DNA from: Streptomycetaceae bacterium MP113-05
GTDB taxonomy: Bacteria; Actinomycetota; Actinomycetes; Streptomycetales; Streptomycetaceae
Reading direction: 5' to 3'
Length of the DNA: 35,449 nucleotides
Assembly (NCBI GenBank): GCA_000497405.1
Contig: KI547039.1
Location: 44,006 to 79,454 of the forward strand
The first letter of the stretch is position 1. The number at the start of each line of letters is the position of its first letter. The notes under the pieces were generated by a model. It saw only the letters and a list, made by a program, of their open reading frames with translations, ran no database searches and was not told the origin of the DNA. Positions 345 through 20,294 of the stretch are shown piece by piece. The position numbers and the translations under genes were made by a program.

Positions 345-946
345 CTCGGAAAGGGCGTCGAGCAGTACAAGCCCATCAACTGGCCCTACCGCTTCCCGGA
401 GGTGTGGCAACAGGGCGGCTTCGACACGGTCATCGGCAACCCGCCGTTCCTGGGCGGCCAGAAGCTTGCCGGAATCTTGGCGAGGCCTACCGGGAAACCT
501 GATTCAACCTCAACTACTCACCATCCGACGTGTTCGAGACGTTCGCCCGCCCTAGCCTCACGCCAGCGCTCCAGCAACTGGGCGAACTCCTCGATCGGCG
601 ACGCCGCGAGATCACGCTGGAGCGGGGCGGTGGGCTCACCACGACCTACAACCGCGCCTACGGCTGGGACGACCTACTCGCTCAGCCCGGCGGTCTCGAC
701 CACGGGTTCCACGACACTCGCCAGGGCCGCCGCTACACCGTGGGTCCGGCCGTCCGTCAGGAGATACTCGACCGGCTGCTGGAGCTCAACCAGAACCGTC
801 ACGCGGCGGAAGCAGCGGCCCGACCCGCAGGACCGGAACCGCTGCCTGTCGCACCCACCCGATCAGGGCTCCGCTACGCATACGCCGCCAGGGGACCATC
901 CAGTGTCCACACCGTCGCCGCGACGCCGGACGTGCGTGCCAGGTAG
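345..946 (+). pseudogene. Decayed type II restriction-modification DNA methyltransferase fragment
   Basis: Pieces of one large N6-adenine methyltransferase family (Eco57I/type IIL-like, class I SAM-dependent) lie in order but in different frames. The first piece, 351-470, carries WPYRFPEVW and GNPPFLGGQKL, where NPPF is the catalytic motif IV. The second, 479-830, starts GEAYRET, then meets an in-frame TGA at 500-502, then NLNYSPSDVFETF, LTTTYNR, YGWDDL, and HGFHDTRQG..YTV..A.RQEILDRLLELN, the usual C-terminus of these proteins. Most of the middle is missing: NPPF is followed almost at once by the late NLNY motif, and TYNR is joined directly to AYGW. The frame change, stop codon and at least two internal deletions make this a pseudogene. 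The 5' SAM-binding part is not present. Its 3' end overlaps the convergent PIN gene. Confidence 0.8.
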
Positions 947-1347
947 CGGTCGCGTTCGACGAGGATGTTCAGGTCCCCGCAGCCCAGCTGATTACTCGCG
1001 TGTTCGACGAGGCTGCTACCGGTCTCGCCACCCGCTATCAGCGTGCGGAGGTGCGCCGCGTTCCATTCCACTTCGTTGAGCACCCAGGGCGCCTTGCCCT
1101 CCACCACCATGCGCAGAATCCCGGCGAACTGCCCGGCGCACTTACGCCGGTAGTGCCCGTTGGGGAGCTGCGCGATGTGGTTGCCCGTCTCGATGACCGC
1201 CGTCACGGGCAGCAGGAGGTGGCAGTCCCAGGCTTCGCGCTTCTCCTGCAATTCCCTGACCACCCGCTCGCGGTCCTGGCACTTGCCGGGCACCGCCAGC
1301 AGGTTACAGAGGATCGACGTGTCGACGAATTCAACCCTGCGCGCCAC
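874..1347 (-). CDS. PIN-like nuclease, partner of the AAA ATPase
   Basis: This 157-aa protein starts at a GTG at 1347, only 3 nt after the ATPase stop (1351-1353), so the two are almost certainly translated together. Visible PIN-type acidic residues are D9 in VEFVDTSIL, E53 in AVIETGNH, D125 in CGDLNILVERD and D150 in VWTLDGP. Their order and spacing fit the metal-binding site of PIN nucleases, which mostly cleave RNA. The size suits a single-domain effector. There is no adjacent small antitoxin; the neighbour is an SMC/OLD-like ATPase. By analogy with ATPase-nuclease pairs such as PARIS and Septu, I infer that it is the toxic effector of a defence module. The fold is called from motifs only. 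The gene ends convergently inside the remains of the methyltransferase. Confidence 0.7.
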   Translation of the reverse strand: MARRVEFVDTSILCNLLAVPGKCQDRERVVRELQEKREAWDCHLLLPVTAVIETGNHIAQLPNGHYRRKCAGQFAGILRMVVEGKAPWVLNEVEWNAAHLRTLIAGGETGSSLVEHASNQLGCGDLNILVERDRYLARTSGVAATVWTLDGPLAAYA

Positions 1348-1350
1348 GTG

Positions 1351-2661
1351 TCACCCGATTCCCAGCATGCGGTCGAACTCCGAGTAGTCACGGTCCCGTC
1401 GAGCCCGGTCGGAGAGGCGCCCCTGCGTGATCACCTCGCCGAGTGTTCCGGCGGCCATGGCCGCCGGGTAACCGTCGAGTTCGGTGAGGCGGGTGAGTCG
1501 GCTCGCTCCGGATGCTCGGTCCCGCCAGCAGACGACGACGCCTTCGTGGTCCGCACTGTCGAGAGCGGAGAGCAGCGCCGGGCTGTGAGTGGTGATCAAC
1601 ACCTGTGTACGGTTCTCCGCGCCCGCCTCCCTGACGAGTTGGAGGACTTCGGACGCCTGCGAGGGGTGCAGGCCGTTCTCCAGTTCCTCCACCACCAGCA
1701 TCAGCGAACGCTCGGTGGGCCGCATGCTCGACGTCCCGAGGTCGAGGCCGCCTCCGCCGGTGAGGAGTGACGTGGTGACCGCGAGGAACCGCAGCATGCC
1801 GTCGCTCATCTCGCGGGCCGGGGTGAGCCCCAGGGAGCCTTCGTCGAGAGCAAGCATCACGTCGCCGAGTTCGGAGCTGGTGACCGCGAGCGTCTCGATG
1901 TCGTGGTCGGCGAGACCTCGCAGCAGCGAGACGAGGCGGTCGAAGAGGGCTGGGTCGGTGCGCTGAAGACTTCCGATCGCGGCGGAGAGATTCTCGGCGG
2001 TGCGCCGGAGGTGGGTGTCCCGGGAGGGCACGTACTGCCGCATCAGGTGCGGCACCGGATCGAGGTGAAAGGCGCCGGCCAGCGCGGAGAGCAGCGTCTC
2101 CGCGCACCAGACGCTCTCCGTCTCGCCCTCGGTGTCACCGCTGACGCGCAGCGGCAGCTGGGACGTGAGCAGCCGCGTGCTGCGGAACGCGCCGCGCGGG
2201 TTGCGGCCGGGCCTGCCGTTGTGCCAGGCGGCCTGGATATCGCCCATGCCCGCGCTGGGCTCGCCGCTGACGAGAATGTCCCGTTGCCCTGCGACTGTGG
2301 GCCCGGTCAGGCGTTCCTCGACGATCTGCACCTCGGGCTCCACCTGGACCGTCACGTCGAGATGGATCGGCCCGTCCTCCGACTGCACGGTGCACCCGAG
2401 GGCGAACCGGTCGGAGCCGTGCGGCACGCAGCCGGCGAGCCCTCCGCGTACGGGCCCGTCCGGGCCGCGCCGGGATTCCAGCGCCTCGGCAATGTCCTCA
2501 CCTCGCGCGAGCCGGGACAACACCTCCAGGCCGTCCAGCGCGTTGGACTTCCCACTGCTGTTGCGGCCGATGAGCACCGTCAGCGGAGCGAGGCGGAACG
2601 CCTCGCCGCGGAAGCTCTTGAACGCGGTCAGGCGGACCTCTGCGATGGCCGGGGCAGTCAC
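1351..2661 (-). CDS. AAA family ATPase (AAA_15/AAA_21, OLD/SMC-like), putative defence sensor
   Basis: 436 aa from a GTG at 2661, chosen because homology begins at once with EVRLTAFKSFRGEAF, the usual N-terminus of this ATPase class, and because the GTG overlaps the upstream stop as GTGA. Motifs: Walker A GRNSSGKS at residues 32-39; an ABC-like signature MSDGMLRFLA; Walker B LMLVVEELENGLHPSQ, with EE in place of the usual DEPE; and the H-loop ITTHSPALL. The C-terminus (about 400-436) is polar and ends in EFDRMLGIG. Such ATPases power many phage-defence systems (AriA of PARIS, PtuA of Septu, OLD). Here the following gene is a PIN-like nuclease, so a two-gene sensor-effector module is inferred. 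An open frame continues upstream to 3150, but that part belongs to another, decayed gene. Confidence 0.85.
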   Translation of the reverse strand: MTAPAIAEVRLTAFKSFRGEAFRLAPLTVLIGRNSSGKSNALDGLEVLSRLARGEDIAEALESRRGPDGPVRGGLAGCVPHGSDRFALGCTVQSEDGPIHLDVTVQVEPEVQIVEERLTGPTVAGQRDILVSGEPSAGMGDIQAAWHNGRPGRNPRGAFRSTRLLTSQLPLRVSGDTEGETESVWCAETLLSALAGAFHLDPVPHLMRQYVPSRDTHLRRTAENLSAAIGSLQRTDPALFDRLVSLLRGLADHDIETLAVTSSELGDVMLALDEGSLGLTPAREMSDGMLRFLAVTTSLLTGGGGLDLGTSSMRPTERSLMLVVEELENGLHPSQASEVLQLVREAGAENRTQVLITTHSPALLSALDSADHEGVVVCWRDRASGASRLTRLTELDGYPAAMAAGTLGEVITQGRLSDRARRDRDYSEFDRMLGIG

Positions 2662-3137
2662 ACCAGCCAAGTTACCCCAGCGAATGCGCCAGGGTCCGGA
2701 CTGTTCGGGCCCGGTCTGGGGCCCGAACGATCGGCCACTCCTCCGGCGGCCTCCAATTCCTCGGCCTCCTCGACCTGGCAGTCGGCACACAGGACCTTCC
2801 CTTCCGGCTCGCGGGTGCGGACGGCGCGCTCGCAGCGGCGGCACGAGACGAGCGGCACCGAGACGGGACGCGGGCGTGGGCGGCCGGTTCCGCTGCGACA
2901 GACAGCGGGGCGGGAGGTGGGTGGTGAGGCGGTGCTCGAGAAAGCGGGCTGGGTGGTGGATCGGCACGAGCTCGGACGGCAGGTTCGCGGTCGAGGTGCG
3001 GGTGACCTGTTCGGGGGTCGCGGATCGCGACAGCCAGGTGTCGACGGACGGCGAGAGGCGCGCGATGTCGCGGGCTGAGAGCAGGAGCCGGGGTCGGCTA
3101 GGCGCAGACGGGCGAGGTCGGTGGTCGGCGATGTCAT
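2658..3137 (-). pseudogene. Frameshifted helix-turn-helix/zinc-ribbon type protein, C-terminal part
   Basis: Three segments recall the C-terminal half of a common Streptomyces HTH-type protein. LARLRLADP (from the ATG at 3137) continues in a second frame as RLLLSARDIARLSPSVDTWL, with AT PEQVTR, HHPARFLEHRLTTHLPP further on. It then returns to the first frame as SCRRCERAV and LCADCQ, a CxxC...CxxC zinc ribbon. Two single-base shifts of opposite sign, near about 3090 and 2880, are needed, so it is called a pseudogene; sequencing error is the alternative. A plausible ribosome binding site (GGAGAG) precedes the ATG at 3137. The expected winged-helix N-terminus is absent. The final TGA (2658-2660) overlaps the GTG of the ATPase, so this gene once led the same operon. 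Confidence 0.55.
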
Positions 3138-3322
3138 CGGCTCTCCGCACTCCTCACACCGCCCCGGTCAAGGCGAATCCGTCAAACCCAGCTATTCAAA
3201 CATGCGCGAAACGAGGCCGAACAATCCCCGTACTCCACGCGTAAACCACATGTCCCGCACATGATGCACCCATGCCACCGCACCCACTCTGGCACCGGTC
3301 GGCGCGGCTAGTGCAGGTTTGG

Positions 3323-4513
3323 TCACAGCACGTCAAAACCTGTCAGCCTGGTCAGCTCGTGATAATTGCCGCGTCGGGCGAGGTCCCCTTCGAATCTGAC
3401 GTCGCGCCGCGTCCGGTGAGCATCGGTCGCCCGGTCATAGTCCTCCTCGGTCAGGTAGAGGTGGATCTGACGCTGCTGGCCGGTCAGGTCCCCGTTCTCC
3501 TTCATCAGCCGGGCTTCGACCGTCACCTTCCCGGGGCCGACATCGGCCGCCCGCTGGAGCCTGACCAGGCGCCCGACCACCGTCACGCCCCTATCCGGTT
3601 CGTTGCTCCGCAGTTCCTGTGCCACTTCCCTCAGCACCGGAACCAGTCCGTGGGGAAAACTCGCGACCGCGCTCCGGTACGGCACGGGCCACCGCGGCGA
3701 CCACGCGAAGCCGACGGAGAAGCCATGGCCCGTTCTCCGATCCCGGCCGTCACTGCCGTCATGTCCGCCGATCCCGGCCAGTGCCTCACACAGATCTGCA
3801 GAGACACCGTGAGCGGCGGATCGGTTCAGGACAGTGGAATCGTCGGTGGCCGCAACCCTCCCGGCGACCTCACGCGCCTCCGAAACCGCTTCGTACAACC
3901 TTCGCGACACTTTCCGCTCGAACGGCTCCGGAGCCATGTCCAGTTCGGGGGTCTCCTCGAAGAGCGAGCCGTCCGAGGAGGCCTGAGGCAGCGGCACCTG
4001 CACTGTGAACACGTAGCTGCCCGGCTCGGTGGGACCAAAGCGGGCACTGCCGACGAAGTCCTTCGCGCGTTGAGGCTTGCGACGTGGCTGCACCAGCCGG
4101 GTCTCACCGGCCACGGTGTCACACGCCGCGGCCATGAGCAGGTCACGCGCACTCGTCACCGCGAGCACCCCGTCCTCCACCGGGATGGAACCTGACGGCG
4201 TGCGGGGCTTCGTGCGAATGTGCTGCACGTCGAGGCCGGCCAACGTCAGATCCCGGTGGACCGCCGCCGGGGGACGCCCCTCGATCTCGGCAAGGGCGGC
4301 GAGCAGGTCGGCCATCCGGTCCGCATAGTCCGCGAGTCCGCTGTCCAGGGGTAGCAGCACGCGACGATGCTGCCCCTCCCACTCCCGCTCCCAACGAACG
4401 CTGTAGCGGACCCGGCGACCCGGCTCCCACCCCCTGCTGTGAAGGTACTGCGCCACGTCACGCGGGCGCAGCCGCTCCAGTTCGTGCTCGGCGATACCGA
4501 CTGTGGTCGTCAT
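3323..4513 (-). CDS. Protein of unknown function, coupled to the DUF4365 gene
   Basis: 396 aa. I do not recognise a named domain. The ATG at 4513 overlaps the stop of the DUF4365 gene as ATGA (4510-4513), so the two are cotranslated. The N-terminus has amphipathic, arginine-rich stretches (HELERLRPRDVAQYL, VRWEREWEG). The middle has an acidic/charged helical stretch with LLMAAACDT, and the C-terminal third looks beta-rich (GVTVVGRLVRLQR, KVTVEARLM, IHLYLTEEDYDRATDAH). There is no signal peptide, membrane segment, Walker motif or clear nuclease motif. Genes like this next to DUF4365 suggest a two-gene unit in a defence island, but that is context only. Base composition and codon use match the neighbours, and the frame is intact although its partner is broken. 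Confidence 0.75.
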   Translation of the reverse strand: MTTTVGIAEHELERLRPRDVAQYLHSRGWEPGRRVRYSVRWEREWEGQHRRVLLPLDSGLADYADRMADLLAALAEIEGRPPAAVHRDLTLAGLDVQHIRTKPRTPSGSIPVEDGVLAVTSARDLLMAAACDTVAGETRLVQPRRKPQRAKDFVGSARFGPTEPGSYVFTVQVPLPQASSDGSLFEETPELDMAPEPFERKVSRRLYEAVSEAREVAGRVAATDDSTVLNRSAAHGVSADLCEALAGIGGHDGSDGRDRRTGHGFSVGFAWSPRWPVPYRSAVASFPHGLVPVLREVAQELRSNEPDRGVTVVGRLVRLQRAADVGPGKVTVEARLMKENGDLTGQQRQIHLYLTEEDYDRATDAHRTRRDVRFEGDLARRGNYHELTRLTGFDVL

Positions 4514-4858
4514 GCGGGCACTTCCTCACACGCTCGACCGAAGAGCTTGTGCAGAACGTCGATCGTGAGCAGATTGTCCCGTGGCACAGTGACAGTCACG
4601 CTCTTCTGCCCCTGCTGGACCGGCACGTGCTGCTCCAGCGACAGCCAGTACGCCGAGTGGCGCAGAATCAGGGCCTGCTCCTCGACTCGGGCGAAGTCCC
4701 TCGGGTCCGGCGGCACCACCACCATCACCAGGTAGCACGGCACCTGGCGCCGGCCACGCAGTCGCCGGTACTGCTCGACCGACAGCGAGACCGGGAAGCC
4801 CGCGCCGGTGGCGCTCGGGTTATCCACCCGGCGGGACTTCACCTGGAGCGAGATCTGC

Positions 4859-5010
4859 ACGTCGAGCTCCGGCACCTCGTGACTCCTCCACCCCGTAAAC
4901 GGGGTGGCTTCTCGCTATGCCTGGTTGGCGTCGCGACGGACCAGCCCGGCCCGTAGAACGTTGGTTGCTCCAACGACGTCGGCGTGTGCAACGAGGCCGC
5001 ACGCCGTACA
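4859..5010 (-). ncRNA. Predicted omega-RNA (reRNA) of TnpB, covering the tnpB 3' end, element end and guide
   Basis: In characterised IS200/IS605 elements the TnpB guide RNA overlaps the 3' end of tnpB, includes the end hairpin, and finishes with roughly 16-20 nt of flanking DNA as guide. Here that places the scaffold across about 5010-4879, including the perfect hairpin at 4888-4907 and the ...GGAGTCAC end. The present guide would be the flank at 4878-4859, inside the DUF4365 gene. The 5' limit is a guess; only the hairpin and the element end are visible. Confidence 0.4.
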
Positions 5011-6129
5011 TCTGAACTTCTCCTGGGTGGGCCGGTTCTCCTTCGCAGTGTGCCCGCATTCGGGGCAGGTGCGGGAGGTGTTGCGGGGGTCCACGGCGAT
5101 CACTTCCCGCCCGGCGCTTTCAGCCTTGGAGTTCAGGATCGCGAGGAACACCCCCCAACCGGCGTCGGCGATCGAACGGTTCAGCCCGGCCTTACTCGCG
5201 GCCCCGTTGGGCAAGAAGCTGCCCGGCTGCTCGGGGTCCGGCTTGGGCGCGGGGGCCTTGCTCATGTTGCGGATCTTGAGATCTTCGTGTGCGATGACGT
5301 CGTGCCTGCGGACCAGGGTGAGCGCGGTCTTGTGCGCGTGGTCGAGCCGCTGACGCCGCACCTTGCCGTGCAGAGCCGCGACCCGTTCCACGGCCCGCTG
5401 ATGATTGGCGGTGCGGTTCTTGGCCTTGCGGCGCGGGTAGCGGCTCAGCGCCCGTTGCGCGGCCTCGAGTTTCGCGGCGGCCCTGCGGGCGCGGCGCGGG
5501 TTGGGGACGTGCTCACCGCCCGAGGTGGTGAGGAACGAAGCGATGCCGAGGTCGACACCGACCACGCTGCCCGCCTTGGGTAGCGGCTCGGGCTGGGTCT
5601 GCTCGGCGGTCAGCACGACGAACCACTTGCGGCCCTCGCGCTTCACCGAGACAGTCTTGACCTTGCCGACCACGGCGCGGTGCTGGTTGACCTTGACGTG
5701 CCCGACACCCTGGAAGCGGACACGGGTGACAGGGTCGTGAGGGGTGGAGTCCCACCGGCAGCCGTCGCCGTCTTTCGGGAAGTTCACCGTGTCGAACCAG
5801 TTCACCCCCCGAAACCTCGGGTAGCCCGGAGCCTCACCGGCCTTGACCCGTCGGAAGAATGCCTGAAACGCCTTGTCCAGCCGCCTAAGCGTGGCCTGCT
5901 GGCTGGAGAAGGACCAGCGGCCCTGCCGTTCGGGGTCGAAGGCCCGGATGTCCTTGAGCTGTCCGGACTGCTGCCCGTACTTCACGCTCGTCTTCGAGGG
6001 GTGCCGCCAGGCTTCGCGGCGTTCCTGCAAGGCCCCGTTGTAGAGGGAGCAGTGATCGCGCAGCATCTCGCCCAGCGCGGCTTGCTGGCCCACGGTGGGC
6101 CGCATGAGGAACTTGTATGCACGGATCAT
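4915..6129 (-). CDS. tnpB: TnpB, RNA-guided RuvC-like nuclease of the IS200/IS605 element
   Basis: 404 aa from the ATG at 6129 (MIRAYKFLMRPT, the standard TnpB opening), preceded by AAGGGGG. An in-frame frame-opening further upstream adds 24 unrelated residues and was rejected. Order of parts: N-terminal OTF_HTH/wedge region (QQATLRRLDKAFQAFF, GYPRFRG), RuvC I GVDLGIASF with D193, RuvC II AHEDLKIRNM with E282, a four-cysteine zinc finger (CPECGH ... CTACG, residues 355-377), and RuvC III HADVVGATNVLRAG with D384. All three catalytic acids are present and length is normal. TnpB uses an RNA made from the element end to cut DNA beside a TAM, which helps retain the element after transposition. 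Confidence 0.95.
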   Translation of the reverse strand: MIRAYKFLMRPTVGQQAALGEMLRDHCSLYNGALQERREAWRHPSKTSVKYGQQSGQLKDIRAFDPERQGRWSFSSQQATLRRLDKAFQAFFRRVKAGEAPGYPRFRGVNWFDTVNFPKDGDGCRWDSTPHDPVTRVRFQGVGHVKVNQHRAVVGKVKTVSVKREGRKWFVVLTAEQTQPEPLPKAGSVVGVDLGIASFLTTSGGEHVPNPRRARRAAAKLEAAQRALSRYPRRKAKNRTANHQRAVERVAALHGKVRRQRLDHAHKTALTLVRRHDVIAHEDLKIRNMSKAPAPKPDPEQPGSFLPNGAASKAGLNRSIADAGWGVFLAILNSKAESAGREVIAVDPRNTSRTCPECGHTAKENRPTQEKFRCTACGLVAHADVVGATNVLRAGLVRRDANQA

Positions 6130-6179
6130 CCAGCCCACCCCCTTCGGGTCGAGTTCCTCGATCCTACTGCATTTGGTGT

Positions 6180-6599
6180 ATGTCACCACGTTGGGAACCA
6201 AATACCGATATCCGCCGGGGTCGTCACGTCGTCTACGACCTGCATGCGCATTTGGTATTCGTGACCAAGTACCGGCGTGGAGTCTTCGACGACGACATGC
6301 TGACGCGCTGCGAAGAGATCATGCGGAACGTCTGCACCGATTTCGGTGCCGAGCTGATCGAGTTCAACGGCGAAGAGGATCACGTACACCTCCTGGTGCA
6401 CTACCCGCCGAAGGTCGCCCTGTCGGCCCTGGTGAAGGGCGTGTCCTCCCGCTACCTGCGGAAGGAGTTCACCGGCCGCGTCAACCGCTTCATCATGCAC
6501 GGCCGGTTCTGGTCCGGCTCCTACTTCGCCGGATCATGCGGCGGGGCACCGCTGTCGATCGTCCGCCACTACATCGAGCAGCAGAAACACCCGTCGTAG
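6180..6599 (+). CDS. tnpA: TnpA, HUH (Y1) transposase of the IS200/IS605 element
   Basis: 140 aa from the ATG at 6180; an ATG further upstream at 6117 would overlap tnpB's start and adds non-homologous residues. Family landmarks: LHAHLVFVTKYRRGVF near the N-terminus, the HUH metal-binding pair in EEDHVHLLV, LSALVKGVSSRYLRKEF, FWSGSYFAGSCGGAPL, and the catalytic tyrosine in IVRHYIEQQ near the C-terminus. TnpA excises and inserts the element as single-stranded DNA using the end hairpins. Length and motifs are those of an intact enzyme. It is divergent from tnpB, an arrangement seen in part of the family. Confidence 0.95.
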   Translation: MSPRWEPNTDIRRGRHVVYDLHAHLVFVTKYRRGVFDDDMLTRCEEIMRNVCTDFGAELIEFNGEEDHVHLLVHYPPKVALSALVKGVSSRYLRKEFTGRVNRFIMHGRFWSGSYFAGSCGGAPLSIVRHYIEQQKHPS

Positions 6600-6881
6600 C
6601 CTGCGGGTCAGAGCAGTCCTGAGATCGGATTCCCTCCCCGCCTGAAGGCGGGGATTCCCTCCGAAGAGAGGGATGGACCCGGCCCAGGATCAGGTCCTTG
6701 CCGGTGTCCGGACGGCACGGAGACCTGAAAACCCGCAGCCGCAGCGATGGCGGCAACGAAGGTCTCCCCGTACCAGCCCTGGTGGTTGTTGTGCTCCATG
6801 CGCCCCCGTGCCCCGGTCGCGGGTCACCCGCCAGCACTCGGGCCCGGAGTGACGTCTCGATCGCTGTGCGCGCAGGCTACC

Positions 6882-6911: not shown

Positions 6912-9506
6912 TCAGCCAGCTTCGCGACTCGCTTCGGCCTGAGCTTCGTCTTCCGGACGCCGGGCTTCTGCGAGGGCGACCGTGTGGACGAACCACTCCA
7001 GGACCGCGCAGATCTCCTCGCCATGCCCGGAGAAGACTTCCACGGGGAAGGACGGACGCAGGTCCAGCTTGGCCTCGGCGAGCTCGAGGCCGTCGATCTC
7101 GTTGAGCCTGGACATCAGCTCACGGCGCAGCGGTTCATCGTCGAAGGGCGGCCGGCGCTTGAGGTACTGGAAGACGACTTCGACCGTGCCGGATGCCGGG
7201 TAGACCGCGATCGGCCACACAGAACGCGGCCGCAGAACGCTGCCCAGGTGGAGGATGGGAGACCAGCTCGTCTCAGTAGCCCCGCCGTATACCTGTCCGC
7301 CGCCCTGGTGCTCCCAGAAGCGCCGCGCGGCCAGCACCCCCTCGACGGTCTCGGAGGTCTGGTTCTCCCGCAGGAGCGTTTCGAAGCGCGCACCGGCTGA
7401 GGGCTGCTCATCGGCCTGACGCTCTGGCATAAGGACGTCTTCGGCCGCGTCCTTGCCCAGAAGCGTCGCCAGATCGGCGGTGGTGAGCCGGTGGGAGCGG
7501 CGCGCCCTCGTGCCGTCGAACGGCACGCCTTCTGCCGTGAGCAGAGCCTGTGGGGATTCGCGGCACTGACCGCCATCAGGCCACTGGAAATGGTCCGAGA
7601 TGCGCCCGTCCGCCGTCAAGACACGATACGCACCGTGCAGGCCGGGGTTCGACGCGAGGTGCGCGCCCACGGCAACGGCATGAGTGCCGATGAGGGCCGC
7701 GATGTCACCGTAGGTGGTCCATGTTCCCGTTGGTAGGGCCATGAGGGCCGCGCGCAGCTCCTGCCAGCCGACCCACTCGTCGGCGCGCAGCAAGCCGTCG
7801 ACCGGCCCGGGCCACAACTCGACGGCTCGCTCCCCAAGGTCGTCGGCCCGTGCAAGGATCTCCGCCCGCCCCCAACGCTGTTGGCCGGCGATCTGCTGGT
7901 TCATCCGGAGGGCGCTGGAGTCGAGGATCTCCTGCTTGCGCCGGAAGGGGTGATTCGAAAGCCGTGCGTTGTCCGCGGACAGAGTGAGGTTGCCCAGGGT
8001 GTGCACGAGCATCGCGTGCAGCTCGTCGGGGCCCTGACCGTCGTCCGCCTCTTCCGCCAGGAGATCGAACCACTGCTGCGCGGGACGCTGCGGCAGCACA
8101 TGCTCCACGGTCAGGCGGGCCCTGGCGTAGTCGACAGGTTCGCTCGCGCGGTAGCTCTCCTCCAGCCTGCGCAGCACCTGCAACCGCTGCGTGCTCCGGC
8201 CGGTCTTGTAGAAGGGACGGGTGCGGATCGCCTCACGGATATCGTCGTCGCCGGGCCAGACCCGCGCACCCGTCTTGTTCCGTGATAGGAGGCGGCGTAC
8301 GGCCTCCGCCGGCGATTCCTCCTTCGCCAGCTCTCTGGGCAGCTCCATGAAGACCCGGTTGTTGCCCGTCGTGGACAGTCCGGCCAGGAGTCGGCGCACC
8401 ATGTAACTCTCGGCGTAGGAGAGCGCCGTTGCGGCGTCGCGCGCGGACGTCTGGCCGCCGTCAACCAGGTTGAGCAGGTGGAGCGCGAGCGGGTAGTGGG
8501 TCTGGCCGCCCCAGCGCGACAGCCTGGCAAGGACCTCGCGCAGGTCGGGGTCCGTCTCGCGCCCGGGCTCCAGGATGCGCATCAGACGGTCGGCCTGTTC
8601 GGCGAGCAGGGCGATCTCCGCCTCGAGCACCGCCTCGTCCCCGCTCAACGGCTCGAGACGCCTCTTCTGATCGCGGTAGATCTCGCTCTGCTTGGCCCTG
8701 TTGTTGCCGTTCACTACCAGGTCGAGCCATACGAGGAGTTCGAGGTTGGCGGGGCCGAGCAGGTCCTGCATCGGGAGCCACAACGTGCGGTACACGGCCT
8801 CGCCGCGGGTGGGGAGGCACATGAAGAGGTAGTTCCGGAGCAGGTCGCTCTGGCTGAGGCCGACGCCCGTGTTGTTGATCGACTCGAAGATCCGGTAGAC
8901 GTTGTCGCCTTCCGCAGCGGTGATCTCTACGATGGACAACAGCCCGCCGAGCACCGTCTCCACGGCGTCCGTCCAAGTTTCGCCGACGGTCTGTTCGCCC
9001 TCCGTCAGCTTGCTCAGGAAGAAGCGGTAGGCGGCTCCCACATTGCCGGAGCCGCCCGCCTTGGGCGAGCCCTCGACGCAGGAGGTGAAGGCGTCCCGGT
9101 CCGCCTGCGTCGGCAGCAGACGGTACCGGTCGTCGCCCTCCCGATAGGTGTTCACCAGGTGCAGGTCGCGGATCCGAGCTGCCTTCATGTCGGAACCGCG
9201 TTCTTGGTGGCGCTCTCGAAGTGCTGTGAAGGCGAGCATCAGCGTCGTGAGTCGCTGCTGGCCGTCGACGACGAGCCAGCGCTGCATGCCGCCCGCACTG
9301 ATCCTGCCCGGCGCCAGCACGACGGAGCCCAGGAAGTGCGCGTTCAGCGGCCTCCCCTCCAGCTTGTCCTCGACCAACTCCACGACGTCGTCCCAGAGCT
9401 GCTGCAACTCCGGCCGTTCCCAGCTGTACGTTCGTTGGTAGAGCGGCACTTGGAACTGCTTCTCGCCCTGCACGAGTTGGCTGAACGTGGTCTCCTGAGC
9501 GTGCAC
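6912..9506 (-). CDS. GmrSD-type (DUF262 + HNH) restriction protein fused to an alkyltransferase-like domain
   Basis: 864 aa from a GTG at 9506 (GAGAGGA upstream). Residues 1-230 are the DUF262/GmrS-type NTP-binding domain: VPLYQRTYSWE (20-30), DGQQRLTT (81-88), FESINNTGVGLS (207-218) and DLLRNYLF. Residues about 440-530 carry the DUF1524/GmrD-type HNH: VEHVLPQ (467-473) and GNLTLSADNARLSNHPF (505-521). Residues about 587-690 match the DNA-binding domain of O6-alkylguanine transferases (GTWTTYGDIAALIG, VGAHLASNP), but the PCHR active site reads GAYR (625-628). So the domain can bind DNA but not accept alkyl groups. A C-terminal part (700-864) of unknown fold follows. GmrSD enzymes are type IV restriction systems that cut modified phage DNA. 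The gene is divergent from the helicase at 9607, sharing a 100-bp upstream region. Confidence 0.9.
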   Translation of the reverse strand: MHAQETTFSQLVQGEKQFQVPLYQRTYSWERPELQQLWDDVVELVEDKLEGRPLNAHFLGSVVLAPGRISAGGMQRWLVVDGQQRLTTLMLAFTALRERHQERGSDMKAARIRDLHLVNTYREGDDRYRLLPTQADRDAFTSCVEGSPKAGGSGNVGAAYRFFLSKLTEGEQTVGETWTDAVETVLGGLLSIVEITAAEGDNVYRIFESINNTGVGLSQSDLLRNYLFMCLPTRGEAVYRTLWLPMQDLLGPANLELLVWLDLVVNGNNRAKQSEIYRDQKRRLEPLSGDEAVLEAEIALLAEQADRLMRILEPGRETDPDLREVLARLSRWGGQTHYPLALHLLNLVDGGQTSARDAATALSYAESYMVRRLLAGLSTTGNNRVFMELPRELAKEESPAEAVRRLLSRNKTGARVWPGDDDIREAIRTRPFYKTGRSTQRLQVLRRLEESYRASEPVDYARARLTVEHVLPQRPAQQWFDLLAEEADDGQGPDELHAMLVHTLGNLTLSADNARLSNHPFRRKQEILDSSALRMNQQIAGQQRWGRAEILARADDLGERAVELWPGPVDGLLRADEWVGWQELRAALMALPTGTWTTYGDIAALIGTHAVAVGAHLASNPGLHGAYRVLTADGRISDHFQWPDGGQCRESPQALLTAEGVPFDGTRARRSHRLTTADLATLLGKDAAEDVLMPERQADEQPSAGARFETLLRENQTSETVEGVLAARRFWEHQGGGQVYGGATETSWSPILHLGSVLRPRSVWPIAVYPASGTVEVVFQYLKRRPPFDDEPLRRELMSRLNEIDGLELAEAKLDLRPSFPVEVFSGHGEEICAVLEWFVHTVALAEARRPEDEAQAEASREAG

Positions 9507-9606
9507 GCGCGTCCTCTCCGACGGTGTTTCCGGAACGGCACGACATTGTTCCTCATCCGGGTACGGTGATCAGCAGAACCGACCGACTGTGAGGGTGAGG
9601 GCACGG

Positions 9607-11778
9607 ATGGCGAACCTGGGAATCCACAAGGACTTCCTGATGGAGTTCGCCAAGCTGGAGAAACCGGTCCAGAAGCGCGTGCAGGAGGTGTTCGACAAGT
9701 TCCGGGAGCACCGGCATGCGGGCCTGCACCTGGAGAAGCTCGCGAACGCGCGGGACCCTCGCATCCGCACCATCCGGATCAACCAGTTCATGCGCGGCGT
9801 CGTGCTGGCTCCGGAGTCCGGGGACAGCTTTCTGCTGCTCAAGGTCCTCCCCCACGACGACGCGATAGCCTGGGCGGGCAAACACCGGGCCACCGTCAAC
9901 TCCGCCACGCAGGGGATCGAGTTGCGGAACGATGTCGCCCTGGAACGTGCGACAGCGGGTGTTCGGCAGCTCGCAACGACGGACACCCGGCGACTGTTCG
10001 CACACGTCTCCGACAAGGATCTGGTGCGGCTGGGCGTGGAAGCCGACCTGCTCCCGCTCGTGCGCCATCTCAGCGACGAAGCACACCTCGACGCCCTGCA
10101 CACCGTCCTCCCTGAGCAGCAGTACGACGTCCTGGCCGGGCTGGCCGCTGGAATGGAACCGGAGGACGTCTGGCGCGAGGTCGTCCAACTGCAACTCGAC
10201 CAGAGCCCGGCGACCAGCGCTCCGCCGAGCCCGACAGCCGTCGATGCGGACGAGCCGGCATTGACCGACCCGCTCTCCGCCGCCATGGCCCGTTCACAGG
10301 GCCGCATCGCGTTGGTCTCCGGTCCCGAGGAGCTCACAGAGATTCTCGAACGTCCCTTCGACGTCTGGCGCGTGTTCCTCCACCCCAGCCAGCGCTGGGT
10401 CGCCTACCGGACCTCCTACAAGGGCCCCGCCCGTGTCTCCGGAGGCCCGGGGACCGGGAAGACGGTCGTCGCCCTCCATCGGGCGCTCCATCTGGCCAGA
10501 CAGCTCCCCGTCGACGCACCCCCCGAGTCGATCCTCCTCACCACCTTCACCCGGGACCTGGCCACCGACCTCGGGCGCAACCTCGAACTCCTCATTCCGG
10601 ACCCGCAGCTGCGCGGCAAGATCCGCGTCGTCAACGTCGATGCACTCGCCAACCAAATCGTGCGCGATGACCGTGGCTCGGTGCTGTCCCTCCTGACCAG
10701 GCACAAGGACATCACCTCACGCTGGGGACGCATCGCAGAACGCCTGGAGATCGAGTTCAGCGATGTGTTCCTCGACCAGGAGTGGAGGCAGGTCGTCCTC
10801 GCCCAGGACCTGCGATCTCCCGAGGAGTACCTCAAGGCCTCACGTGCCGGGCGCGGCACGTCGCTGGGGCCGTTGAAGCGGGCACAGATATGGCGGGCCG
10901 TCGAAGCGTTCACGAAGGAACTGCGCAAGAACGAGGAGTGGACCTTCCTCCAGGTGTGCGCGGAAGCCACCCGACTCCTGGAAGGCAGGGAACAGCGGCC
11001 CTACCGGCATGTGGTGATCGACGAGGCACAGGACCTCCACCCGGCTCAGTGGCGGCTGCTGCGAGCCCTGGTGACATCGGGGCCCGACGATCTCTTCATC
11101 GCGGGCGACACATACCAGAGGATCTACGGGAACAAGGTTTCCCTGCGGAGTCTCGGCATCACGGTAACGGGGCGATCCACCAGACTCCGCATCAACTACC
11201 GGACGACCAAGGAGATCCTTGTTTGGTCCACCCGACTCCTGACCGGGGAGCAGGTCGACGACATGAACGGTGGGAACGACTCGCTCACCGGCTATCGCTC
11301 CGCTCTTCGCGGCGGGCAGCCGCAGACTCAGGGCTTCACAAGCAAGGCCGAAGAGCTCTCCGGCCTCGTCACCCAAGTAGGAGAGTGGATCGCTTCAGGC
11401 GTCGCACCACAGGAAATCGGCGTGGCCGTGCGCTTCGTCCAGCTGGGCAAGGACGCCGCGCACGCGCTGCGTCAGGCGGGGCTGCCTGCCGTCGCGCTCG
11501 GTGGAGCCTCGGCCCCCGAGGCCGGTGTCCGCATCGGGACCATGCACCGCATGAAGGGACTGGAGTTCCGCTGCGTGGCCGTCGTCGGCGCCGGCGAGGG
11601 AGTGGTGCCGATGCCCGGCGCGGTGACGGCGGAAGAGGTGGACGCCCAGCAGTATCGCGAGGACGTACTGAGCGAGCTCAGCCTGCTGTTCGTCGCCTGT
11701 ACCCGGGCCCGCGATGCGTTGCAGGTCTCCTGGTACGGCTCTCCGAGCCGCTTCCTCGTCGAAGCGGGAGCAGTCTGA
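9607..11778 (+). CDS. Superfamily 1 (UvrD/Rep-like) helicase with RelE/ParE-like N-terminal domain
   Basis: 723 aa from the ATG at 9607 (GAGGG 5 nt upstream). Residues 1-95 (IHKDFLMEFAKLEKPVQKRV ... LLLKVLPHDDAIAWA) resemble the RelE/ParE toxin fold in length and in the LLLKV-type final strand with following helix. Helicase motifs follow: Walker A SGGPGTGKTVVALHRA (about 278), Walker B VVIDEAQDLHPAQW (about 470), motif III/IV AGDTYQRIYGN and LRINYRTT, motif V GTMHRMKGLEFR, motif VI LLFVACTRARDAL. It should be an ATP-driven 3'-5' DNA or RNA translocase. Family members with this N-terminus are usually annotated simply as UvrD-type helicases. Its position back to back with the GmrSD-type gene suggests joint function in defence; this is inference. 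Confidence 0.9.
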   Translation: MANLGIHKDFLMEFAKLEKPVQKRVQEVFDKFREHRHAGLHLEKLANARDPRIRTIRINQFMRGVVLAPESGDSFLLLKVLPHDDAIAWAGKHRATVNSATQGIELRNDVALERATAGVRQLATTDTRRLFAHVSDKDLVRLGVEADLLPLVRHLSDEAHLDALHTVLPEQQYDVLAGLAAGMEPEDVWREVVQLQLDQSPATSAPPSPTAVDADEPALTDPLSAAMARSQGRIALVSGPEELTEILERPFDVWRVFLHPSQRWVAYRTSYKGPARVSGGPGTGKTVVALHRALHLARQLPVDAPPESILLTTFTRDLATDLGRNLELLIPDPQLRGKIRVVNVDALANQIVRDDRGSVLSLLTRHKDITSRWGRIAERLEIEFSDVFLDQEWRQVVLAQDLRSPEEYLKASRAGRGTSLGPLKRAQIWRAVEAFTKELRKNEEWTFLQVCAEATRLLEGREQRPYRHVVIDEAQDLHPAQWRLLRALVTSGPDDLFIAGDTYQRIYGNKVSLRSLGITVTGRSTRLRINYRTTKEILVWSTRLLTGEQVDDMNGGNDSLTGYRSALRGGQPQTQGFTSKAEELSGLVTQVGEWIASGVAPQEIGVAVRFVQLGKDAAHALRQAGLPAVALGGASAPEAGVRIGTMHRMKGLEFRCVAVVGAGEGVVPMPGAVTAEEVDAQQYREDVLSELSLLFVACTRARDALQVSWYGSPSRFLVEAGAV

Positions 11779-18150: not shown

Positions 18151-19120
18151 ACGAGTAGTTCCGATGTTCCGGCCCGTGAACGGGGCGAGGGTGTCCAAGA
18201 TCAGTTTGTGACGACCGACCTGGACACCCTCATCACCGGACTGTACGTGAAGGTCGACGACGAGATCGGAGGTATGCGATGGCTGGGCAGGCCACCTCGG
18301 CTGAGCGACTCCGAGCTGGTGTGTCTGGCTGTTGCTCAGGCACTGCTGGGGTTCACCTCCGAGGCACGCTGGCTGCGCTTCGCCCGCAAGAACCTGAGCC
18401 CGATGTTCCCGTACCTGCCCAAACGACCCGGGTACAACAAGCGGCTGCGGGCCGCGTTGCCCCTGGTCAAACAGGCGATACGACTGCTGGCGACGGACAC
18501 CGACTTCTGGTTCGACAACCACTGGATCGTCGATTCCACGCCGGTGCCGTGCGGGATGTCGCGGCCGACGGTGAAGCGGTCGGAGCTGGCCGGCTGGGCC
18601 GGATACGGGTACTGCGCCTCCCACTCACGGTTCTACTGGGGCCTGCGGTTGTTCCTGGTCTGCACCCCGACGGGCATGCCCATCACCTGGGCCCTGGCCA
18701 GCCCGAAGATCGACGAGCGGGAGGTGCTGGCCGCGATGCTGGATCGCGAACCGCACCTGGCCGTCGACCGGCCCGGGCTGCTGATGATCGCCGACAAAGG
18801 TTTCGCCTCCAAGGAGTTCGAGACCGACCTCGCCTTCCAGGGCATCGAGTTGCTTCGTCCATCCTTCAAACGAGAGAAACCCCGCAGGGGCGAGTCGCTG
18901 CTGAAGTCGGTGCGTCAGCTGATCGAGTCGGTCAACGACACGCTCAAGGGCCAGCTCGACCTCGAAGAACACGGCGGACGGTCTTTCGAAGGCGTCGCCG
19001 TCCGCGTCGCCCAGCGGATCCTCGCGATGGCCTCGGCCATCTGGCACAACCACAAGACCGGGGCCACAGTGCTGCGGTCGCTGACCGCATTCGATCACTG
19101 AGCACATCGGAACTACTCGT
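18151..19120 (+). mobile_element. IS982-family insertion sequence (970 bp)
   Basis: Inverted repeats of 17 bp match perfectly: ACGAGTAGTTCCGATGT at 18151-18167 and its complement at 19104-19120. A CTAG flanks both sides (18147-18150 and 19121-19124), read as a 4-bp target duplication. Ends beginning with AC and the size fit IS982. The right CTAG overlaps the left TA and first base of the adjoining IS630 element, so the two elements abut. Confidence 0.85.
18208..19101 (+). CDS. IS982-family DDE transposase
   Basis: 297 aa from a GTG at 18208. The sequence has the usual opening of Streptomyces IS982 transposases (DLDTLITGLYVKVDDEIGG, RPPRLSDSELVCLAVAQALLG). The catalytic region has D in HWIVDSTPVPCG, D in LLMIADKGFASKEFE and E in IESVNDTLKGQLDLE. 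KRSELAGWAGYGYCASHSRF is also characteristic. No stop or frameshift is seen, and the length is that of a complete enzyme. It is contained within the inverted repeats. An IS5-like assignment was considered because of the 4-bp CTAG duplication, but the protein fits IS982 better. Confidence 0.9.
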   Translation: MTTDLDTLITGLYVKVDDEIGGMRWLGRPPRLSDSELVCLAVAQALLGFTSEARWLRFARKNLSPMFPYLPKRPGYNKRLRAALPLVKQAIRLLATDTDFWFDNHWIVDSTPVPCGMSRPTVKRSELAGWAGYGYCASHSRFYWGLRLFLVCTPTGMPITWALASPKIDEREVLAAMLDREPHLAVDRPGLLMIADKGFASKEFETDLAFQGIELLRPSFKREKPRRGESLLKSVRQLIESVNDTLKGQLDLEEHGGRSFEGVAVRVAQRILAMASAIWHNHKTGATVLRSLTAFDH

Positions 19121-19123
19121 CTA

Positions 19124-20294
19124 GTGTCGCGTGATTCCGTTAGCGTTATTTGATTCTCTGTGGCAGGGTCTCTTGGTGTGGAGCTCTCCGTGGAACAGAC
19201 CGCCGAGTTGCGGGAGTTGGTGAACAGCCGGGACGCACCCGCCGACATGGCGACGCGGGGCCGGATCGTGCTGTGGTCGGGCGAAGGCCGTCGGCGTAAG
19301 GACATTGCCGAGCTGCTTGGTGTATCGCTTCCGACGGTGGACCGCTGGAAGCGGCGTTATGCCGAGCTCGGACTGGCGGGCCTGGAAGGCGACCGGCCCG
19401 GCGGCGCACGGGAACAGGTGCCGGCGCGGGTGCGGGCCCGGGTGATCGCGCTGACGCGCATGACGCCGCCGGACGGCACGGGGCTTTCGCACTGGTCCAC
19501 ACGCGAGTTGGCGAAGTACCTGAAGCGGGTCGAGAACATCACGGTGTCCTGGCACTACATCGCGCGGATCTGGCGGGAGGAGGGTCTGAAGCCGCACCGG
19601 TCCGGCACCTTCAAGATTTCGAAGGATCCGGCCTTCGCGGAGAAGGTGACTGATGTGATCGGCCTGTATCTGGACCCGCCGGGTGGCGCGGTGGTCCTCT
19701 CGATCGACGAGAAGACGCAGATCCAGGCGCTGGACCGGACGCAGCCGGTGCTGCCGGTCGCCTTCGGGGCGAGCGAGAAGCGCACCGCCGACTACGTGCG
19801 GCACGGCACCACGAACCTGTTCGCCGCCCTGAACGTGACCACCGGTGAAGTGCTCGGTGAGTGCAAGCCGTCCCGGAACGGCAAGGACTTCCTGGCCTTC
19901 CTCAAGAAGGCGGTGAAACCGCACGCGGGGAAGGACATCCATGTTGTCCTCGACAACCTCTCGACGCACACCACCCCCGAAGTCAAGGAGTGGCTGGCGA
20001 AGAACCCACACGTCCACTTCCACTTCACCCCCGTCGGCTCCTCGTGGCTGAACCAGATCGAGATCTGGTTCGGACTCCTGACCCGTCAGTCCATCCGGCG
20101 CGGAACGTTCGCCAGCGTCAACGTCTTGATCAAACAGATCCGTGACTACATCAACACCTGGAACACGACTGCGAAACCGTTCACCTGGACCGCGACCGCC
20201 GGCGACGTCCTCGCAAAGGTTCGCCTCGTCGCGACTAACGCGAAGAAACTCGTCAATAACAACGCGAACTGACATAAACAGGATCACGAGACAC
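19124..20294 (+). mobile_element. IS630-family insertion sequence (about 1.17 kb)
   Basis: It is flanked by TA on both sides (19122-19123 and 20295-20296), the fixed target of IS630/mariner elements. The terminal repeats GTGTCGCGTGAT (19124-19135) and ATCACGAGACAC (20283-20294) match at 11 of 12 positions. Removing it and the neighbouring IS982-like element restores an unbroken ...GCGCGACTAGGTCCTG... after the amidase gene. Confidence 0.85.
19160..20272 (+). CDS. IS630-family transposase
   Basis: 370 aa from a GTG at 19160. The N-terminal half has helix-turn-helix regions (RRRKDIAELLGVSLPTVDRW, then the winged ELAKYLKRV...WHYIARIWREEGL). The C-terminal DDE domain has D in VVLSIDEKTQIQAL, D in IHVVLDNLSTH and E in SSWLNQIEIWFG, the DDE triad of IS630/mariner transposases. 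A single uninterrupted frame encodes it, without the programmed frameshift used by some IS630 members. The C-terminus is Lys/Asn-rich and lies just inside the right repeat. It appears intact. Confidence 0.95.
   Translation: MAGSLGVELSVEQTAELRELVNSRDAPADMATRGRIVLWSGEGRRRKDIAELLGVSLPTVDRWKRRYAELGLAGLEGDRPGGAREQVPARVRARVIALTRMTPPDGTGLSHWSTRELAKYLKRVENITVSWHYIARIWREEGLKPHRSGTFKISKDPAFAEKVTDVIGLYLDPPGGAVVLSIDEKTQIQALDRTQPVLPVAFGASEKRTADYVRHGTTNLFAALNVTTGEVLGECKPSRNGKDFLAFLKKAVKPHAGKDIHVVLDNLSTHTTPEVKEWLAKNPHVHFHFTPVGSSWLNQIEIWFGLLTRQSIRRGTFASVNVLIKQIRDYINTWNTTAKPFTWTATAGDVLAKVRLVATNAKKLVNNNAN

What the first reader, a model, noticed from the sequence alone, without database searches (positions are those of the whole stretch)
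4510..6799. IS200/IS605 element lands between the catalytic elements of a DUF4365 nuclease-like gene
Joining 6673 to 4878 restores the reading frame exactly (TGKDLILGRVH to EVPELDVQISLQVKS) and puts back the D...QxK spacing of a restriction-fold core. This gives the element limits to within a few bases, the empty target site and a candidate TAM (TCCAT). An extra base further upstream is a separate lesion, so the nuclease was hit twice.
Basis: seen in the sequence. Interest (0 to 1): 0.55.

Follow-up and report, generated by a model that had tools for sequence, protein, structure and literature searches.

The report
Jumping gene broke a defence nuclease
A common type of bacterial jumping gene has landed inside a nuclease gene that related soil bacteria carry, intact, within an anti-phage gene cluster; here that cluster has also lost its core genes, so this is mostly the ordinary decay of a defence island.

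Summary
Window 4879-6672 is an IS605-type insertion with divergent tnpA and tnpB. It splits a DUF4365 gene (6799 down to 4510) between the conserved Asp codon (6694-6696) and the QxK codons (4837-4845). Six further copies in the genome fix its ends, and four uninterrupted relatives have the length that the 6673/4878 junction predicts.

Three details change. The upstream frameshift is not an extra base: the gene is two bases short of 4 of 4 relatives at about 6712-6714. The candidate TAM is CCAT (11 of 12 left ends scored; TCCAT in 7). The joined text has Val where 4 of 4 relatives have Asp.

The gene is PDC-M02A, partnered by PDC-M02B (3323-4513). Of 30 other genomes found with PDC-M02B, the 11 most similar carry a DrmD-type helicase within about 16 kb, and 10 of these DrmMI; DrmA lies in the same island in 6 of 6 tested. 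This genome has no DrmD or DrmA match, only DrmMI-like fragments, and a deletion scar of about 9.6 kb.

Verdict: an ordinary insertion in a decaying DISARM-type island; the DISARM linkage of a DUF4365 pair is the interesting part.

The parts
4879..6672 (-). IS605-type insertion sequence, 1794 bp, left end at 6672, right end at 4879
   Evidence: Seven copies in the genome; shared ends
6673..6676 (-). CCAT, target-site motif / candidate TAM left of the element (TCCAT if 6677 is counted)
   Evidence: CCAT next to 11 of 12 left ends scored: 7 of 7 in this genome, 4 of 5 in other species
4915..6129 (-). tnpB, 404 aa from the ATG at 6129 (start inferred; the open frame reaches a TTG at 6201)
6180..6599 (+). 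tnpA, Y1 transposase, about 139 aa from the ATG at 6180 (start inferred); lacks three residues (NSL) found in 23 of 25 scored copies
4879..4923 (-). right end with covarying terminal hairpin, probable 3' part of the reRNA/omega RNA scaffold
   Evidence: 29 related sequences; four inner stem pairs formed in 26-28 of 29, with 3 to 5 pair types each; no shuffle control run
4859..4878 (-). sequence just past the right end, predicted TnpB guide; it belongs to the interrupted gene
   Evidence: Position only, by analogy with ISDra2 reRNA (PMC8612924, passages); in this genome no match of the 20-base empty-site text with fewer than 2 mismatches and none that starts with CCAT
6674..6799 (-). N-terminal part of the broken DUF4365 / PDC-M02A gene
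   Evidence: PDC-M02A 1.3e-13; no Pfam match for this short piece alone
6712..6714 (-). frame lesion: two bases fewer than in 4 of 4 relatives
6694..6696 (-). codon of the conserved catalytic-type Asp (read in the frame that follows the lesion)
   Evidence: D36 of L039 is invariant in the 16 proteins aligned
4510..4878 (-). C-terminal part of the DUF4365 / PDC-M02A gene
   Evidence: DUF4365 3.4e-10; PDC-M02A 2e-33
4837..4845 (-). QVK codons, second half of the catalytic motif
   Evidence: Counted by hand
3323..4513 (-). PDC-M02B, intact partner gene, start overlaps the end of PDC-M02A
   Evidence: 6e-126
3105..3213 (-). stub of the upstream region and first codons of drmD, then a deletion junction at about 3105-3117
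   Evidence: matches L086 7810-7917, then L086 17539-17792; DrmD residues 14-33 at 80% identity
360..959 (+). fragments of a DrmMI-like methyltransferase, closest to the second one of G122
   Evidence: 54-64% identity; the only DrmMI matches in the genome
6912..9506 (-). GmrSD/DUF262 gene, intact, conserved neighbour
9589..11778 (+). UvrD-type helicase, intact, conserved neighbour
874..2655 (-). PDC-M07A (matched part, from about 2655) and PDC-M07B, retained island genes
   Evidence: 4.1e-195 and 3.8e-55

Best explanation
A multicopy IS605-type element inserted, by the single-strand Y1 mechanism, 3' of a CCAT motif inside a DUF4365 (PD-(D/E)XK-type) nuclease gene, and separated its catalytic Asp from its QxK. 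Shown: element, ends, target motif, uninterrupted relatives, an open tnpB frame, and a separate two-base shortfall upstream (as assembled). Also shown: the nuclease gene is PDC-M02A, next to PDC-M02B, in an island that in close relatives is a DISARM-type locus (DrmD, DrmMI, DrmA), while this genome has no DrmD or DrmA match and keeps only DrmMI-like fragments. Inferred: the nuclease is dead; TnpB with its right-end RNA would cut the empty allele and so hold the insertion in place; the loss of the nuclease is part of the decay of the whole island.
For: Domain matches; seven copies with common ends; 4 of 4 relatives with an uninterrupted site of the predicted length; a second copy (L004) whose site is uninterrupted, with the same length rule, in the 3 relatives examined of 4 found; CCAT at 11 of 12 left ends; covarying right-end hairpin; window copy 100% identical to the L002 copy over 1799 bp; dN/dS of the C-terminal piece 0.30-0.39 against relatives, within the 0.26-0.47 of intact pairs, so the break looks recent; relatives' islands and this genome's losses.
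Against: No reads, no second strain, no expression or activity data. The nearest uninterrupted relatives are about 67% identical at most in the C-terminal piece, so one junction base stays ambiguous, and dS is high (0.65-0.74), so the dN/dS test is blunt. The fold could not be predicted (mean pLDDT 36.7), and neither profile search found a DUF4365 structure in the PDB. TnpB and guide function are by analogy only. The left-end motif fails in 1 of 12 (L054).
Confidence: 0.88

Rival explanations
1. Selected inactivation: once the DISARM methyltransferase and core were lost, the orphan DUF4365 nuclease became costly, and its breakage by IS and frameshift was favoured.
For: Among 12 genomes (this one and the 11 with the most similar M02B) only this one has a broken M02A and only this one lacks DrmD. 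The DrmMI-like fragments are more diverged (54-64%) than the M02A C-terminal piece (67%), so the core may have gone first. Type II restriction enzymes without their methylase are toxic (PMC3488263, abstract).
Against: One event only. 19 of 30 PDC-M02B loci show no DrmD or DrmMI in the stretch fetched, and 17 of these 19 have an M02A open frame, so the pair need not depend on DrmMI. Order of events not shown. Neutral decay fits as well.
Confidence: 0.3
2. The two-base shortfall is an assembly or sequencing error, so the gene was hit once.
For: One draft assembly of 75 contigs, no reads available.
Against: The site is not in a homopolymer; 4 of 4 relatives agree with each other in length against the window.
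Confidence: 0.15
3. A reversible switch: the element excises and restores the nuclease when needed.
For: Y1 elements excise precisely (ISDra2, PMC2806898, passages) and the junction is in frame.
Against: The separate frame lesion would keep the gene broken; tnpA of this copy lacks residues present in 23 of 25 scored copies; none of the 4 close relatives carries an element at this site.
Confidence: 0.03
4. IS605 elements of this group are aimed at defence genes.
For: This one copy.
Against: Pfam on ten flank frames of the other six copies gives HATPase, Glyoxalase, ArsR-type HTH, TerD, Endonuclease I, aminotransferase, CbiX and MFS matches, one sub-threshold match (PrmC_N) and one blank. I recognise no defence cluster there, but PADLOC was not run on these flanks.
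Confidence: 0.03

Closest known systems
IS605 / IS608 / ISDra2 (IS200/IS605 family)
   Same: Y1 TnpA, TnpB, no target duplication, insertion 3' of a fixed short motif, right-end hairpin followed by flank that would serve as guide
   Different: Motif CCAT on the left instead of TTGAT (ISDra2) or TTAC (IS608) (PMC8612924, passages); ISfinder name not determined
DREN/DUF4365 nuclease domain of SPARDA short Argonaute systems
   Same: DUF4365, Asp-Gln spacing of 19 residues and QxK (PMC12205087, passages)
   Different: In relatives a stand-alone protein of about 167 aa, without APAZ; partner is PDC-M02B, not an Argonaute
PADLOC candidate PDC-M02 (A+B)
   Same: Both genes adjacent, strong matches
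   Different: A is broken here; in the most similar genomes the pair sits in DISARM-type islands
DISARM, DrmD-containing type (class 1; class label recalled)
   Same: Relatives carry DrmD, DrmMI and DrmA in the same island
   Different: This genome has no DrmD or DrmA match and only methylase fragments

Membership tests
IS200/IS605 insertion sequence | Y1 (HUH) transposase TnpA | tested here: met
   PF01797 7.4e-38
IS200/IS605 insertion sequence | TnpB | tested here: met
   PF01385 1.9e-21 and PF07282 5.8e-21
IS200/IS605 insertion sequence | Insertion 3' of a fixed short motif without target duplication | tested here: met
   CCAT at 11 of 12 left ends; no duplication in this site or in the L004 site, the two sites compared with relatives
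IS200/IS605 insertion sequence | Subterminal hairpins | tested here: met
   Right end: covariation in 29 sequences. Left end: inverted repeats seen by eye in the sequence only
IS200/IS605 insertion sequence | Transposition activity | not testable with these tools
   Near-identical copies at different sites suggest recent movement
DUF4365 nuclease | Profile match above cut-off | tested here: met
   40.5 bits against 24.3 for the C-terminal piece; 47.8 for the intact relative L039
DUF4365 nuclease | Catalytic Asp and QxK at DREN spacing | tested here: met
   Distance 19 in window pieces and close relatives, 20 in L095, counted by hand; Asp invariant in the 16 proteins aligned
DUF4365 nuclease | PD-(D/E)XK fold | tested here: inconclusive
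   Single-sequence model of the relative had mean pLDDT 36.7
PDC-M02 | A and B genes adjacent | tested here: met
   A is interrupted
DISARM (this genome) | DrmD, DrmMI and DrmA present | tested here: not met
   DrmD and DrmA no match while control genomes matched; DrmMI fragments only
DISARM (relatives' islands) | DrmD, DrmMI and DrmA present | tested here: met
   DrmD in 11 of 30 and DrmMI in 10 of 30 M02B loci; DrmA in the same island in 6 of 6 genomes tested, one of them the source of the query
DISARM (relatives' islands) | DrmB and DrmC present | tested here: inconclusive
   DrmB seen in G029 only, among 9 proteins scanned from six genomes, five of which matched nothing; DrmC not seen in the PADLOC scans run, and not sought by itself

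The most novel reading that the evidence does not exclude
PDC-M02A/B is the nuclease arm of a DISARM variant of this genus: a DUF4365 enzyme encoded between GmrSD and DrmD that does the cutting that DrmC does not account for. When the methylase and helicase core is lost, the nuclease is purged, and this window catches that purge with TnpB guarding the insertion.
Probability: 0.2. Interest if true: 0.6.

Novelty: new member of a known kind. Interest (0 to 1): 0.32.

Why it matters
The insertion is ordinary, but it is exactly bounded and gives a CCAT candidate TAM and reRNA right end for a high-GC TnpB. More useful is the context: a DUF4365 nuclease pair sits inside DISARM-type islands in the genomes most like this one. 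A DISARM structure paper says that the candidate nuclease DrmC is dispensable and often missing, that how the DNA is degraded has remained a mystery, and proposes that another PLD-type nuclease is recruited (PMC9142583, passages). The pair is a testable alternative candidate, and this genome is a natural case in which core and nuclease are both gone.

Tried and rejected
Single-sequence structure prediction of the intact relative (L039) failed (mean pLDDT 36.7), so no fold search was run. PDB profile searches gave only weak unrelated hits (best E 1.4, 0.37). A viral-contig scan with the M02A alignment matched 24 stretches by pattern, none a relative. Rfam gave nothing in the window, and no tRNA was found. 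The flank of copy L005 was also sought in relatives, but matches began 251 bases or more from the junction, so it says nothing about the joint; of the four relatives found for L004, one match (G012) began 155 bases in and was left out. The idea that the element prefers defence genes was dropped. Reading the DrmMI fragments as remains of the operon's own DrmMI was dropped: they match the second, convergent methylase of G122 better. A general dependence of PDC-M02 on DISARM was dropped: 19 of 30 loci show neither DrmD nor DrmMI in the fetched stretch. The left-end comparison covered 5 of the 29 other-species loci; in the other 24 the match began beyond position 15 of the element. The MAFFT alignment A3 shifts the QxK of the close relatives by a few columns, so that spacing was counted by hand. 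In one search one second-round profile could not be built (error printed; apparently M07B, which has no row in the table), so that family was searched with its seed model only. One PADLOC model labelled DrmA (PDLC02572) also hit the DrmD protein; DrmA rests on other models. Search tallies are lower bounds where only a few candidates per genome were scored (2, 4, 9). Papers: 'PDC-M02' is in no paper of the held library; 10 papers hold DUF4365, of which I saw passages of two and the listing of the rest; the 10 papers listed (of 432) have no DUF4365; some searches were seen as listings, from which PMC8612924 and PMC2806898 (passages) and PMC3488263 (abstract and outline) were opened. Collections of phages, plasmids and E. 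coli genomes were not searched.
Full report
WHAT WAS CLAIMED.

THE ELEMENT. tnpB (minus, frame 4915-6201, likely start 6129) matches OrfB_IS605 and the Cas12f1-like TNB domain; tnpA (plus, likely 6180-6599) matches Y1_Tnp. The genome (5.96 Mb, 75 contigs) holds six more copies at 99-100% identity. Aligned, 7 of 7 share the left boundary after CCAT, and 6 of 6 with a contiguous right end stop at GGAGTCAC and then diverge. The seventh, L007, has its right end split off by about 1.5 kb of other sequence that holds a 447-aa open frame resembling an ISL3-type transposase (the ISL3 label is recalled). Close homologues (E <= 1e-200, two candidates scored per genome) occur in 36 of 295 genomes of the genus, this one included. 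In 29 sequences (window plus 28 others) the right-end hairpin shows compensatory change: the four inner pairs form in 26 to 28 of 29 with 3 to 5 pair types each; the sequences are related and no shuffle control was run. 28 of the 29 end in TCAC and one in TCAG (L074). L081, whose match did not reach the right end, was left out.

TARGET MOTIF. Of 12 left ends that could be scored (7 here; 5 of 29 elsewhere), 11 have CCAT and 7 of these TCCAT; 3 have GCCAT, 1 ACCAT, and 1 end (L054) has no CCAT. A second copy, L004, interrupts a TerD-domain gene. The three relatives examined, of four found, carry that gene uninterrupted with the same length rule. CCAT is therefore the candidate TAM by analogy with ISDra2, where the target motif and the TAM are the same (PMC8612924, passages). 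The last base of the junction could be the T of CCAT or the C of TCAC; relatives are too distant to decide, and both encode His.

THE GENE. The C-terminal piece (4510-4875) matches DUF4365 at 40.5 bits (cut-off 24.3) and PDC-M02A at 2e-33; the N-terminal piece (6674-6799) matches PDC-M02A at 1.3e-13 (it has no Pfam match of its own); the overlapping next gene is PDC-M02B at 6e-126. They read through the junction without gain or loss of length. The conserved Asp is invariant in the 16 proteins aligned and lies 19 residues before the Gln of QxK, the spacing of D41 and Q60 in the solved DREN domain, which is DUF4365 and has a PD-(D/E)XK fold (PMC12205087, passages). So the element does separate the two halves of the likely active site. 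The fold itself could not be confirmed.

THE SECOND LESION. Against 4 of 4 relatives the window is two bases short at about 6712-6714. That gives the same frame as one extra base, but it is a loss. It is not in a homopolymer, but no reads are at hand. The joined text also has Val where 4 of 4 relatives have Asp. The C-terminal piece looks recently broken: its dN/dS against relatives is 0.30-0.39, and intact pairs give 0.26-0.47; with dS of 0.65-0.74 this mostly reflects the time before the break.

TNPA OF THIS COPY. The window copy and L002 are identical over 1799 bp and lack three TnpA residues (NSL) present in 23 of 25 copies in which the motif could be scored; 10 of the 35 sequences scanned gave no motif match and were not counted. 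Since both copies share the deletion, the shortened element probably moved at least once, by its own TnpA or by that of another copy (inference).

THE ISLAND. In G122, G039, G015 and G234 the order is UvrD (opposite strand), GmrSD, M02A, M02B, DrmD, DrmMI, with a match to M07A or to the sequence upstream of it beyond; DrmD and DrmMI of G122 match PADLOC with E-values of 0. PDC-M02B was then sought in 392 genomes of the genus: 31 have it at 1e-15, this one included, and flanks were fetched for the other 30. DrmD-type helicases lie within about 16 kb of it in 11 of 30 and DrmMI in 10 of 30; the eleventh (G278) has an HmaB-type adenine methylase instead. These 11 are the 11 most similar to the window's M02B by E-value, and all 11 have an open M02A frame. 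The other 19 show neither gene in the fetched stretch, mostly about 9 kb on each side; 17 of these 19 have an M02A match. The search was not even: four of the 11 had been extended by 10 kb, and in two of them (G029, G140) DrmD was seen only in that extension. Two of the 19 were looked at further, and one (G303) lies beside pPIWI-RE genes. DrmA was found in the same island in 6 of 6 relatives tested (one of them the source of the query) and not in this genome; DrmB was seen in G029 only. In this genome DrmD has no match while five of five control genomes do, and DrmMI matches are fragments only, at window 360-959, closest to a second, convergent methylase next to M07B in G122. A scar at about 3105-3117 joins the first codons of drmD to the region upstream of M07A; about 9.6 kb present in L086 and about 9.9 kb present in L093 are missing.

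MECHANISM. Most likely the element, mobilised by Y1 transposition, landed by chance at a CCAT in a gene of an already decaying DISARM-type island. Its TnpB, if active, would cut empty alleles through a guide made of the gene's own sequence, and so keep the insertion. No unoccupied site was found in the genome: up to 3 mismatches, the 20-base empty-site text has four matches, the best two with two mismatches, one of them the element's own right junction; the reversed control pattern gave nine. Whether the nuclease was lost because its methylase was lost is a real possibility (about 0.3), not a result: one event, order unproven, and many PDC-M02 pairs were seen without DrmMI nearby.

NOVELTY. 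The insertion is a new member of a known kind. The DISARM linkage of a DUF4365 pair was not found in print within the limits.

Noticed in passing
L083:1959-3302 (G000:C6): Another copy of the IS (L007) has about 1.5 kb with an ISL3-like transposase frame (label recalled) inserted near its right end.
   Followed up: partly
window 18208-20272: Two adjacent DDE transposase genes (DDE_Tnp_1 and DDE_3).
   Followed up: no
window 360-959: Fragments of a DrmMI-like methyltransferase next to PDC-M07B, more diverged (54-64%) than the intact island genes compared (67-83%).
   Followed up: partly
window 6912-9506: GmrSD/DUF262 protein carries an alkyltransferase-like DNA-binding domain (PF01035, 3e-9).
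   Followed up: no
L143 (G303): A distant PDC-M02A/B pair lies near a pPIWI-RE and PprDinG pair.
   Followed up: no
L129 (G278): PDC-M02A/B lies directly upstream of a DrmD/HmaA-type helicase and an HmaB methylase.
   Followed up: partly
window 6180-6599 and L002: Two identical IS copies share a 9-bp in-frame deletion in tnpA, a natural test of whether TnpA without these residues still works.
   Followed up: partly
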